DNA of 64,000 bases from Tubulanus polymorphus (taxonomy: Eukaryota; Nemertea; Palaeonemertea; Tubulaniformes; Tubulanidae). Made by a program: the position numbers and the translations under genes. The DNA lies in assembly GCF_964204645.1 (NCBI RefSeq), contig NC_134031.1, forward strand, positions 4,943,001 through 5,007,000. The letters are read 5' to 3'. Below the pieces are notes generated by a model. That model was not told the origin of the DNA. It did no database searches and saw nothing but the letters and a program-made list of their open reading frames with translations. Of this stretch, positions 2,997 through 35,900 are shown one piece after another; positions within the stretch are counted from its first letter, which is position 1, and every line of letters starts with the position of its first letter.

Positions 2997-5900
2997 GTAA
3001 GTTATGAGCAGGCTGGTAAGTTATTTGACTTTTCGCTCACACGCCGTTGTTTGGTTGATGTTGAATTAAGCATCATTTTCAAGGATGGATCCATATCCAT
3101 GGGAACTTTTTGAAATATCTTGAAGAACATGGTGAGCATGCACTGTTGGTCTGTTCCCGGGGTCTGTTTAATACCTAGCTGTTGTTCCTGAAGCAGTTGT
3201 AGGAGAATCAGTACATCTTTTGGTATTCAGACTTTTATTGGTCAAATTTGAAATCAACAAGTCATTGAAATCAGTTGATTTTCGATGTTTTAATTCTTGT
3301 GTCAAAATTTTCACTCAGAACTATAATGGAGCTACTCCAAAGTGCAGGAAAACCTGCCTGCCGATGAGCCACTATTGGCTATATAAAGATTAAACTTTTT
3401 CTATGCCCCTACAAGGTATTGGTCCACACGCTTTTTGCCATATGCAGAAGCAATTAATGATACGATTCAATAAGAAAAGACAAACAATGAACTTATTGAA
3501 TTTTTTCAGGATATTTTCCTTACTTATTTCTTTAACTCACAAATTGAGCGTACAAACCAAAGTAGACTTATTCAGTAGGCCTAGTGGTTAACTGATCTAT
3601 TTCAAAAGCCTTCAATTTCCCCAGTATCCTTACCCCGTACCCTCGTGAAGTAGGCCTAAATGAATAAGTACAACCATCCATAGTGTTGTGAATTAATGTG
3701 GTTTTAAGTCATAAGAGTTAAAAAGATGAATTGCGATGAGCTGTAGGCCTAAACCAAATAGTGAGCGCCGTGCAGCATTTTCCGCTCTTTGGTAATTGAT
3801 ATAAACGCTAATGATGTAGAAAATATCTCTTGAAGTTAAAGTTAGATCGAATTTAATGAAAATTATATCTTTTTTTTCTGAATTGATAAGAAATGATTAA
3901 TATTCGAGGTGTGAAAATCTAGAGGTCGTGGCATCGGTTTAGTTTGACTAAATAATTCACCAATTGCTGTTAATTTTTACGCGAGCTGACACTAAATTCG
4001 GTGCCAACATCATCTCCAAAATCATTTCGATGATTAGTTACGTTTAAAATTTTTTTCAAAAGTTGGTCTCTTAAGCTTCTGTCGCCTGCGGTGAAAACGT
4101 TTAATATTATAACCATTGGTCTCAGTGATAACCACGTTTATAACTACTGCAGCAGTTTTCAGACGTCACTCACAGTTAGAGATGAACGCAGCTTTCAGTG
4201 TGAATTTGACCGCAGTCGCTACGACGACCGTCAAAGGATTCAGACCACATTCTAGATGCAAATTCATCCATCATTCCGACTACAAATCGTTTAACTTGAA
4301 CATGTTTTACCAGGTTAAGAACTGGGTCGTCGCTAGCGTCGCTGTGTTCGGCGTTATCGGAAACGTTTTGTCGTTCGTGATTCTGCGCAAAGAAATCTCG
4401 AAAAATACGAGTATTTTCTATCTGAAATATCTGGCTATTCTCGACGTGTGTATGTGTGCGTCTTATCTTGTATTTGATTTCCAGAATGAATTGTACAGTC
4501 ACACGTTATTACTCGACCATACTTTACAATTCAACCACTTTATGAAGAGACTCTACCCGTACACGCAACAAATTAGGTTTTGTTTTTCGGGTGTCTCTGA
4601 CATGTTAATTCTGGTGATCGCTGTGGACAGATTTATTGTAGTTCGGTGGCCTCTAAAAGCCAGCACACTGATTTCAATGAAACGAGCTCACATCAATGTA
4701 GTAGCTATAACTTTATTAGTTGAAGTGACGTGTGTGCAATTGTTTTTTAAACGATGGACTCGTAGGTCTATCAATCCTTGCACTGGATACGAAAGATGGA
4801 CCACGAGGATAACTGCGTTCAGTAAAAACCTCTACTATCGTTATTACATGTTATTCGTACACGCCCCGATCTTTCATATGATTCCATCAGTGGCCATTTT
4901 CATGATTACCATAAATATAATTGTAATACTGAAATCTTCAAGCGATACCAGAAAACACATGACGTCATCAACAGTTCCTTCTAGGAATAAACAAGATCGA
5001 AGTTTGACGATTTCTTTAGTTATTATTTGCTCTATACATTTGATAAAACGCTCTCTACTTTTGTCTGGTGCGATAAGCAACTGGTTGGTGTATAAATACG
5101 GAAAGAAAGCTTTGCTGTTACCCGGTAAAGCACCTTATATGGACGGCGTAAAAGACTTGATGAGAAAAGTTTCGGCGTCCGCGAATTTCTTCATTTACGT
5201 CGCTATGAGAGAAAGTTTTCGTCACCGACTTCGCAAAATGTGTTTCGTTATCAGAACAAATGGCAGTGATTAGCAAGGATTAGCAGTGTTGCTGAAACCG
5301 TTAGGTACAGGCAGTTACTAGACAAGCAACCTAAAAACTCAGTTACCATCAGCATTCACACCTTATTACAGTTTCCAGTATTGCCATGTCTATGGGTTCC
5401 CGGTCGTTCAGCATTGTTGAATATTTTCTCTATTTTTCAATGAGGCTCGTCATTTAGTTCACATCTCTGGATTGGATTCAGAATGTTACTTGTATTCTGA
5501 TTTCATTAGCACCCGCTGGTGAGTAATCGTCTCCGCGCGATCACGGCCTAGGTCTTACGAGAATGGTCGCTTACGTGTGTTGTGCTTCATGAATTCATCT
5601 ATTTCATTAATAGGGGTAACTAGCCGATTTTACTTAAAGTTATCACTGAATCTTCGTGTTTTTTCACACACTGATAGCTATCTGTATGAACTGAAGCACG
5701 GCTATTTTTTTACTTGAAAACAATTACGTGGCTCTGAATAAACACTTAAAAACACTTGTCAAGCATCTGTCGCAATAGGGACTTATTACATTATAGCAAA
5801 TAGTGAGAATCAAGTTGCAGTTACTTTCAACGCACGACTTATAAAAAAACACATATCCAAGGGAATTGTCTAGTTGAATGCCCGGATATTTACCTCTTTT

Positions 5901-32900: not shown

Positions 32901-35900
32901 TAAAGCGCTCTCTACTTTTGTCCGGTACGATTAACAACTTCATAGTGTTTATATACGGCAAGAACGTTCTGCTGTTACCCAATACAGGGCCTTATTTGGA
33001 CGGCGTAAAAGACTTGATGAGGAAAATTTCAGCATCCGCGAATTTCTTTATTTATGTCGCAATGAGAAAAAGTTTTCGTCACCGACTTCGCGAAATGTTT
33101 TGTCATCAGAAGAAATGACAGCAATTAGCGGAAATACTGAAACTGCTTCATTACTTTAAGAGTTACTGGGGGGTGGCGTGCTGGAATAGCAACCCTGAAA
33201 CTCAGTGACCAGCTGGGGGAGCCAATTGAGTCGGAGAAAGGTCAATTTTTAAAAAAAAGCTCAAATTAGTTGGATTTAATGGGAACAACGGTTTTGCACG
33301 AAGATTGTCAATCGCTCCATTCATTCTCATCAGAAAGATGAGTCTGCTTGACGTGGCAGGAAAATCGACAGTGTTTAAAAGTCAGTAGTAGCTGGTAATG
33401 CAGATGTGACCTGCATCACTATTCAAGAGTAGTTACTATTCTTTTAAGAGCTCGGTTACGACCAATGTTATCAACATGCTCACGAAGTCAGGGTAATTTC
33501 TAGTTAATTTTCAATTCAGCTACGATTTTCGATGTCTCATTGAGGTGAAAACTAAACACAAATTTGCGTGGTTGCATAACTATTTGCGCAGTGAATTGCA
33601 GAGGAAACGTGAAGCCTTAATGGCCATTTAGAAAAAACTATAGCAATATATATATACACAAACATTTTCATTTTAAAGCTTCATTCAAACTACGTTATTC
33701 TCAATGGTCTAAATTTGATCTGTTGGTACTCGTTAAAGTCCATTCTAAATTTGCCTGTTCCATTTTAGACTGTACTCATTTGCATGAACCTGAAAGATCC
33801 ATCCGTCCGTTGTACATTTCCACTTCCACTTCCATGTGTGTGTCCGGTTCAAATGCGTGTGCCTGGTTCACGGCAGGCACACATTGACGATTGTTCTAGG
33901 CCAAGCCAAAAATGCTTTTGTGACCAAGACTTGTAATATTTGTCTTTAGAACTGTAAGATATTTTTTTGCAGTTTGTAGCCAGATAAAGCAAGGCGTGTA
34001 TGCAATAATAGGTCCGGCGTATTCCGTTAATCTGAAGGCTGTTCATCCATTGAACTTTGGGTTTCATATACCGATAATTGCACCTTCAGCTTCCGATCCG
34101 CATCTGGCTATTTTCAATGAAATATATCGGTAAGCACAACAATCAACAATGGCTTCTAAATTCATGTACTTATTCTGCTCAAACGCCTGCAGTTAGTCAA
34201 AAAATGTTCGATGTTAAGGTCAATTAAAATGAAATTGATCAGGTTGATTTTAAGTTTTGACGAACTGGACCCATTTCATTTTATTCTAAATCGATATTTA
34301 AAATCCTATTTCTACATTAAAATCGATTGTAAACTAATTCCTATGCAGACATATAAAGTTCCTCTTTTATTCTGTGGAGCTCAGAATTTATACATGGTAA
34401 CCCTGTGTTGAAATTTTAGCAATTCTAAAAGTTTCATTGATTTAATCGGTTGAGATTGTGATCAGTAACTCACATGTAAAAAAAATGTGTAAAATCTGGA
34501 AAATTATATTAAAAAATGTGAAGAGCCAATTTTTAGGATGTGAAAAATTCCTGGGTTCATCAATCAGACCTAGTATTCGTGCCTGTATTCGGAACGAGTA
34601 TTAGTGTGTTGATTCCCTACTAGTCGTCCACATTGCTACCTTAAATTTAATTCACTTATTTTGATCGTTGATTCAGGTACATATTACGTTTAAGTCCAAC
34701 CGATGCGTTGCAGAGTGTGGCCCTGGCTGATTTTGTCCACTATTTCCATTTCATGACGATGGTCTTGCTTACCGACGACACAGAATTTGGTACGTGTGCC
34801 GGTATTTAAATCGATTTTATTTCATATTTCATCTATTCAATGATTAATTTCATTAATTCAATAGGTTTTATGATTCGGTCCCGGTGTCATAGAAATTAAG
34901 AGATGGTTGGTCTTTTGAAGTTGTTTTGAAAAATGTGTCCTGGTAATTTTTTAGGTCTCATATAAAAGTGTTTCTTATTTTTCAAGGAATAAACGGATTG
35001 AGTGAGTTTCAAACTATAGCGGCGTCGAACAAGTGGAGAATTCTCAGTGCGCAGCGGGTGAACGTACCGAGCAATGTGTCGATGCTAAACGCGTCCGTTC
35101 AGCTGCAAAATATCAAACATACAGGTACATGTCAAGTCGTAGTCATATCATCGTTTTGGGGGATCTAGCATGAAATTTACTAGGGGTTCTTTTCATGAAA
35201 TATGAGACTTGAGTGGCATTTTTGTTGCTGCGTGTATGGTTTGGCCATGTATCTAATGCAGCCAGGTCCTTCAGATAATCATGCAAATTAGATGCAAACG
35301 TCAGGAGTGATTTCACGGCTTTTGGAGTGAAAACGGAAGGAACTTTTGCTTCATTTTGCAGGCAGCTATTGAGTGTTAAAGGGTGACAGATCCATGGCCC
35401 ATGGCGTATCAGTGGGGTACGGACCCCACTCAAATTTTGAGGTCCCTTAGTGCGAGGAGGAATTCGGGACATTTTTTCATTTGGAACTACGTGCCTGACA
35501 GTTGATCATGGTGACCACGATTGTGGAAAATTGGGAAAACACAGAGAACAACTGATTTCTCTCAGGGAAAATACTTTGATAAGTTGGGCATCTGTTTTAT
35601 GCATAAGATTATACTAGATTATTATTACTGCTTGTATAATGGATGGATTGTGGTCACCTAAGTTGATGCATCTACAGTTTTAGTTGGTTTAGGAAGAGTT
35701 TATGTTTGTGATTTATGTACATGTCTTGCTTCATATATGCACATGCACATTACAGTTCATGGTAACTGTCGATGCACATGCATGTAAGTTAACAAGCAGT
35801 AGTACATCGGATCGATGATTGTAATGTATATATATTTCAGGAGCGCGCGTGGTTTTATTGCATACTCATGCCGATTACGCTGTGGAGATAATGAAACAAG

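What the first reader, a model, noticed from the sequence alone, without database searches (positions are those of the whole stretch)
2997..33972. A GPCR gene family has expanded inside one intron of a glutamate receptor gene
Sequence: eight open intronless GPCR copies, one pseudogene and one relic lie on the same strand between receptor exons 2 and 3, whose phases and protein sequence join perfectly. Knowledge: nested single genes are common, but a tandem array filling a 31-kb intron of a neural receptor is unusual. Inference: the array depends on the host intron for open chromatin or is co-regulated with it, and each host transcript carries all copies in sense orientation.
Basis: partly seen in the sequence, partly recalled or inferred. 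Interest (0 to 1): 0.85.

Follow-up and report, generated by a model that had tools for sequence, protein, structure and literature searches.

The report
Receptor gene array inside an intron
One intron of a glutamate receptor gene in an animal genome really does hold a home-grown array of eight intact smell-type receptor genes, a striking but understandable case of genes nested inside another gene.

Summary
A complete 19-exon, 999-aa AMPA/kainate-like ionotropic glutamate receptor (iGluR) gene spans 1821-46592. Its second intron is exactly 2997-33972 (30,976 nt, GT-AG, phase 1) and contains eight open intronless class A GPCRs, one broken copy and one relic, all on the host's strand. The protein aligns to a solved kainate receptor straight across the junction. 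The closest iGluR paralogue has the same intron at the same site and phase, only 771 nt long and without these GPCRs, so the array entered an existing intron later. The copies form one clade, grew as about five B-A gene pairs (5-kb tandem units, about 3% diverged), exchange sequence, and are under purifying selection. A further copy sits on chromosome C11 in a flavin-monooxygenase array, next to a dispersed repeat; it was probably exported.

Dependence on, or co-regulation with, the host intron is not supported: the C11 copy and three of the four next relatives show no host gene, and A-type copies keep a TATA-like element. Shared orientation is one event, not nine. No RNA was available.

Unexpected: a second iGluR gene (C5) holds four antisense GPCRs of another family in one 7-kb intron. 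I score this a new member of a known kind, of moderate interest.

The parts
1821..1911 (+). host iGluR exon 1 (start of the protein, signal-peptide-like), ends phase 1
2832..2996 (+). host iGluR exon 2, ends phase 1 (AGGCAG|gtaagt)
2997..33972 (+). host intron 2, 30,976 nt, GT-AG, phase 1
   Evidence: same position and phase in the closest paralogue
4182..5273 (+). GPCR copy c1 (B type), open, 363 aa
6671..7750 (+). GPCR copy c2 (A type), open, 359 aa; Pfam 7tm_1
9264..10319 (+). GPCR copy c3 (B type), broken: first 12 codons lost at a tandem-duplication junction, two TGA stops inside
11718..12797 (+). GPCR copy c4 (A type), open, 359 aa
15193..16332 (+). GPCR copy c5 (B type), open, 379 aa
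20211..21290 (+). GPCR copy c6 (A type), open, 359 aa; first third c1-like (mosaic)
23646..24734 (+). GPCR copy c7 (B type), open, 362 aa
26851..27758 (+). relic: A-type 3' flank, B-type 5' flank, last 53 nt of a B copy (27383-27435), A-type 5' flank
28526..29617 (+). GPCR copy c8 (B type), open, 363 aa
32039..33118 (+). GPCR copy c9 (A-like 5' flank and C-terminus, divergent), open, 359 aa
4218..9255 (+). tandem unit 1 (c1+c2); about 95% identical to 9264-14349
9264..14349 (+). tandem unit 2 (c3+c4)
19750..24720 (+). unit with c6+c7, 94.7% identical to 11259-16267 (c4+c5)
6530..6537 (+). TATA-like element of c2; same element at 11577, 20070, 31892 and in the C11 copy (15 sense matches to the short pattern in the whole intron)
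16954..17871 (+). (AC)n run of 459 units inside the intron
33973..34129 (+). host iGluR exon 3, starts phase 1 (ttttgcag|TTTGTAGC)
34677..46592 (+). host iGluR exons 4-19 (34677-34789, 34987-35124, 35841-35965, 36721-36876, 37499-37666, 38053-38157, 40674-40811, 40895-41107, 41493-41733, 42145-42216, 42544-42744, 43008-43218, 44842-44960, 45082-45235, 45361-45544, 46344-46592)
39075..40010 (-). unrelated class A GPCR, open, 311 aa, antisense in host intron 9 (38158-40673); member of another large dispersed family

Best explanation
A single intronless class A GPCR gene of a large chemoreceptor-like family landed in an existing, short phase-1 intron of an AMPA/kainate-like iGluR gene. It duplicated into a B-A pair; the roughly 5-kb pair was then multiplied by tandem duplication to about five pairs, swelling the intron to 31 kb. 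Copies exchange sequence by gene conversion; most are kept by purifying selection, one was cut by a duplication junction and carries stops, one pair decayed. One copy was probably exported to chromosome C11. Shown: anatomy, host unity at the protein level, single clade, tandem units, mosaicism, dN/dS, the short empty intron in the closest paralogue. Inferred: a single founder, the direction of the C11 move, that the copies are transcribed from their own proximal promoters as ordinary nested genes while the host splices across them, and that they are chemoreceptors.
For: Host model of 19 exons with GT-AG sites and one open frame; gap-free alignment to GluK2 across the junction and Pfam ANF_receptor, Lig_chan-Glu_bd and Lig_chan in one protein. 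The closest paralogue at C7:14.64 Mb has the same intron site and phase, 771 nt, with no match to the eight array proteins. Units 4218-9255 / 9264-14349 and 11259-16267 / 19750-24720 about 95% identical; substitutions 2.6-3.3% in non-coding parts, gaps left out. Array plus C11 form one clade (95/91) apart from the four C9 relatives (99/98). MaxChi: 55 of 168 triplets had 0 of 400 permutations reaching the observed value; c6 matches c1 rather than c4 at 24 of 29 informative sites before codon 114 and at 1 of 92 after. dN/dS 0.25-0.56 over 28 pairs, dN below dS at uncorrected p<0.05 in 27 of 28 (the exception is c2-c6, p=0.056). TATA-like element in c2, c4, c6, c9 and C11.
Against: No transcript evidence at all. 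The TATA-like element is a short pattern with 15 sense matches in the intron, of which these are four, and in B-type copies the comparable region lies some 370 nt or more upstream (by eye) and is degenerate in c5, c7 and c8. In the tree 5 of 23 inner branches are under 80, the program warned of long branches (C9e among them), and gene conversion disturbs branch order, so the nesting of C11 inside the array clade is moderate evidence. Coding divergence of c5/c7 (6.5%) exceeds that of their flanks (2.6%), which I explain by conversion but could partly reflect diversifying selection. That C7:14.64 Mb is the closest paralogue rests on identity, not on a tree.
Confidence: 0.86

Rival explanations
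1. The array depends on the host intron: it is opened, transcribed or chosen through host transcription.
For: All nine copies share the host's strand; two iGluR genes in this genome hold GPCR arrays in an intron.
Against: One founder plus tandem duplication makes shared orientation one event. The C11 copy of the same clade is open and lies between FMO-like genes; the C9 group of three sits between a NACHT gene and another reading frame with no host seen; the C5 array and the intron-9 GPCR are antisense. OMP, nested in CAPN5, is expressed in olfactory neurons without it (PMC6549253, abstract).
Confidence: 0.1
2. Exons 1-2 and exons 3-19 belong to separate genes and the array is intergenic.
For: The 31-kb intron far exceeds the next longest host introns, 2.5 and 1.6 kb.
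Against: The exon 1-2 protein is the start of the amino-terminal domain and aligns without a gap into exon 3 with GluK2; phases match; the closest paralogue has the same two exons 771 nt apart.
Confidence: 0.02
3. Some copies are false duplications, that is haplotypes laid end to end in the assembly.
For: Units differ by only about 3% in substitutions, within what heterozygous invertebrates can show (recalled, not tested).
Against: No N in the window; the unit 1/2 junction cuts into c3, which carries its own two stops; mosaic copies and a divergent c9 are not simple haplotypes.
Confidence: 0.08
4. The copies act as alternative 3' exons of the host, giving fused proteins.
For: Several AG sites within 120 nt of the start codons would keep the frame open from host exon 2, among them the TTTTCCAG site of c8.
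Against: The TTTTCAG site near the start of c1, c2, c4 and c6, and the TTTACAG site of c9, are out of frame and run into a stop from exon 2; in c5 and c7 the site is lost. Most of the in-frame sites have weak pyrimidine tracts.
Confidence: 0.03

Closest known systems
Nested intronic genes of Hormiphora californensis (PMC8527503; passages read)
   Same: Genes inside single introns, many parallel to their host: 2357 nested genes in 1654 hosts.
   Different: The passages read describe no single-family sense array filling one intron of a receptor gene.
Nested tandem single-exon genes of the dinoflagellate Polarella glacialis (PMC7245778; one passage read)
   Same: Up to 18 and 24 nested genes per host gene in its two genomes; an example of 15 nested genes over three introns of a putative alanine-tRNA ligase gene, with repeated family members.
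   Different: Not an animal, several families and introns, not GPCRs.
LRRTM genes nested in alpha-catenin introns (PMC3933685; abstract and outline)
   Same: Intronic transmembrane neuronal genes that, in the authors' model, entered an existing large intron.
   Different: Single genes on the opposite strand, copied along with their hosts rather than within an intron.
OMP nested in CAPN5 (PMC6549253; abstract and outline)
   Same: A sensory-neuron gene nested in an intron.
   Different: Single gene; reported there as expressed in olfactory neurons that lack the host protein.
Large intronless class A chemoreceptor-like GPCR families of invertebrates (recalled as a kind)
   Same: Intronless, tandem; 115 matches in this genome, a lower bound; Pfam 7tm_1, Srw and Srx.
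   Different: No ligand or expression known; this sub-family sits in an intron.

Membership tests
Nested intronic genes | coding sequence lies wholly within one intron of another gene | tested here: met
Nested intronic genes | separate transcripts for nested and host gene | not testable with these tools
   no RNA data; only a TATA-like element
Class A (rhodopsin-like) GPCR | matches the family profile over its cut-off | tested here: met
   two of the eight open copies given: 7tm_1 39.6 and 41.8 bits for c2 and c1 (cut-off 30.5), Srw 37.6 and 40.1 (cut-off 22.2)
Class A (rhodopsin-like) GPCR | seven-helix fold | not testable with these tools
Chemoreceptor | binds external ligands, expressed in sensory cells | not testable with these tools
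   inferred only from family size and arrays
Ionotropic glutamate receptor, AMPA/kainate type | amino-terminal domain, glutamate-binding domain and channel domain in one protein | tested here: met
Tandem array with gene conversion | repeated units and mosaic copies | tested here: met
Retrocopy (for the C11 copy) | poly(A) tail at the end of the homologous block | tested here: not met
   none seen in the alignment; the block ends at a dispersed repeat

The most novel reading that the evidence does not exclude
iGluR introns in this animal are recurrent nurseries for GPCR arrays (a sense array in the C7 gene, an antisense array of another family in the C5 gene, and a third nested GPCR in the C7 gene), and host transcription through them takes part in receptor choice, tying a fast glutamate channel to chemoreceptor expression.
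Probability: 0.07. Interest if true: 0.82.

Novelty: new member of a known kind. Interest (0 to 1): 0.47.

Why it matters
It is a clean natural case of an intron made long (31 kb, against 771 nt in the closest paralogue) because a gene family multiplied inside it without breaking the host frame. It makes testable how a long sense array and its host share transcription, and whether receptor arrays gain anything from such a site. The second iGluR intron array in the same genome gives an antisense comparison.

Tried and rejected
Separate genes on the two sides of the array: rejected by the continuous amino-terminal-domain alignment and the paralogue. Retrocopying as the route to C11: no poly(A) tail seen in the alignment. 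Carriage of the C11 copy by one known element: its 3' edge meets a dispersed repeat (68 matches, 24 of 50 rows start at query 541 or 542 and 9 more at 532-540, while homology to the window ends at 548, so they overlap by about 7 nt), but the repeat matches of the left flank (12 rows besides itself, 71-77%) do not lie beside those of the right flank when the two lists are compared by eye, so one element with two ends is not shown. Poly(A) signals: 23 AATAAA in sense, 37 antisense, about 27 expected by base composition, no clear pattern (repeated units counted separately). Phylum: no COX1 match; the annelid linker family did not ring, but it rang in none of the controls either, so this says nothing; searches of genome notes by size gave no match. 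Chance of nesting in iGluR genes was not computed, because the counts of both GPCR families are lower bounds. Literature on nested arrays; on intronless chemosensory GPCRs. None of the listings seen describes a nested GPCR array, which is no proof of absence.

The tree used 26 rows: the eight open array copies and 18 of the 21 family loci then held from outside the window. L027, L035 and L037 were left out because one search gave each a stop; the broken c3 was left out too.

Full report
WHAT IS THERE. The window is part of contig C7 (21.6 Mb) of an unnamed 268-Mb genome. The host is a complete iGluR gene: 19 exons from 1821 to 46592, all introns GT-AG, 999 aa, one frame. Pfam finds ANF_receptor, Lig_chan-Glu_bd and Lig_chan in the one protein, and the 60 best of 477 solved relatives shown are AMPA and kainate receptors. 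Its content is eight open GPCR copies, the broken c3 and a relic.

ONE GENE ACROSS THE ARRAY. GluK2 (5kuf) aligns to host residues 28-603 with no gap at residue 85/86, where the intron lies. The closest paralogue by identity, at C7:14.635-14.643 Mb (41-55% over four matched stretches), has exon 2 and exon 3 separated by an intron at the same site and phase, 771 nt long; the 6 kb read there hold no match to the eight array proteins. In the window, 2997 to about 4050 shows only short matches to the array and 33657-33972 none, so the pre-array intron may have been about 1.4 kb (inference).

HOW THE ARRAY GREW. Segments 4218-9255 and 9264-14349, and 11259-16267 and 19750-24720, are about 95% identical. 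By upstream sequence and C-terminus the copies alternate B, A, B, A, B, A, B, relic, B, A-like, so the unit is a two-gene pair. The junction of units 1 and 2 lies inside c3, which lacks 12 codons and has two TGA stops. Non-coding divergence between units is 2.6-3.3% in substitutions. Coding sequence is mosaic: c6 matches c1 rather than c4 at 24 of 29 informative sites before codon 114 and at 1 of 92 after; 55 of 168 triplets had 0 of 400 permutations reaching the observed value (triplets overlap and are not independent). Pairwise dN/dS is 0.25-0.56 over 28 pairs, with uncorrected p<0.05 in 27 of 28 (pairs are not independent).

RELATIVES AND EXPORT. The family has at least 115 matches in the genome (113 of 1105 first-look candidates were scored), nine of them in this window; the nearest outside is a single open copy on C11 (87%), then four on C9 (63-66%); the other rows are at 34-52%, 64 of them on C12 by my count. 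In a tree of 26 rows the array and C11 are one clade (95/91), with C11 beside the A copies (98/96). The C11 copy lies between two copies of a tandem FMO-like gene. Sequence shared with the other FMO spacers, weakly (68-71%) on the left and at 70-81% on the right, stops before it and resumes after it, so C11 looks like the receiving site; this direction is an inference. Its 3' edge meets a dispersed repeat with about 7 nt overlap. The C9 group of three has a NACHT gene on one side and a 382-aa open frame without a Pfam match on the other; no host gene was seen, but only 8 kb beyond the group on each side were read, and the fourth C9 relative was not looked at.

HOW IT MOST LIKELY WORKS. As ordinary nested genes. 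c2, c4, c6, c9 and the C11 copy share a TATA-like element about 140 nt before the ATG (the short pattern occurs 15 times in sense in the intron), and the C11 copy stays open away from the host. The host must splice across 31 kb with nine sense copies in it. Nested genes can disturb host transcripts in human cells (PMC3192792, abstract and outline), so interference is a fair expectation, but nothing here measures it. Co-regulation is not supported. Same-strand orientation follows from one founder.

A SECOND CASE. Window intron 9 carries an unrelated antisense GPCR (39075-40010) of a second large family (at least 127 matches, itself included). On C5 an iGluR gene has a phase-2 intron 538195-545196 (7,002 nt) between its S2 and M4 exons; it holds four open antisense GPCRs of that second family, 58-62% identical to the window's. 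The M4 exon there was recognised by eye and by the join K-WWAVGEC, not by a profile. Whether iGluR introns are enriched for GPCRs was not tested; with families this large, chance is a serious candidate.

NOVELTY. Nested intronic genes are frequent in several animal genomes and parallel ones have been reported (PMC8527503, passages), and nested arrays are in print for a dinoflagellate (PMC7245778, one passage). In five searches on nested genes and one on intronless chemosensory GPCRs I saw no listing of a GPCR array in a single intron of an animal gene. I file it as a new member of a known kind.

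Noticed in passing
G000:C5:538195-545196 (L074, L075): A second iGluR gene has a 7-kb phase-2 intron with four open antisense GPCRs of a different family.
   Followed up: partly
window 39075-40010 (-): Open intronless GPCR antisense in host intron 9, from a second family with at least 127 matches across the genome.
   Followed up: partly
L012 3115-3980 (C11): The C11 GPCR copy ends at a dispersed repeat of about 860 nt; many repeat copies begin within a base or two of the same place, with about 7 nt shared with the GPCR block.
   Followed up: partly
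C11:9962001-9981500: Tandem array of at least five FMO-like genes (the first incomplete in the stretch read), with the GPCR copy in one spacer.
   Followed up: partly
window 16954-17871: Very long (AC)n run, 459 units, inside the host intron.
   Followed up: no
c5 (15193-16332) and c7 (23646-24734): Coding parts differ by 6.5% while flanking non-coding parts differ by 2.6%, the reverse of the usual pattern; read as gene conversion.
   Followed up: partly
window 44169-44713 and 37138-37355: Tandem repeats of 154-nt and 109-nt units in later host introns.
   Followed up: no
window 8390-8621: Short stretch of the array spacer that matches a repeat dispersed over the genome at 75-80% (37 of 40 scored rows).
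   Followed up: no
L072 6133-7281 (-): 382-aa open frame beside the C9 GPCR group, without a Pfam match; it looks like a multi-pass membrane protein by eye.
   Followed up: no
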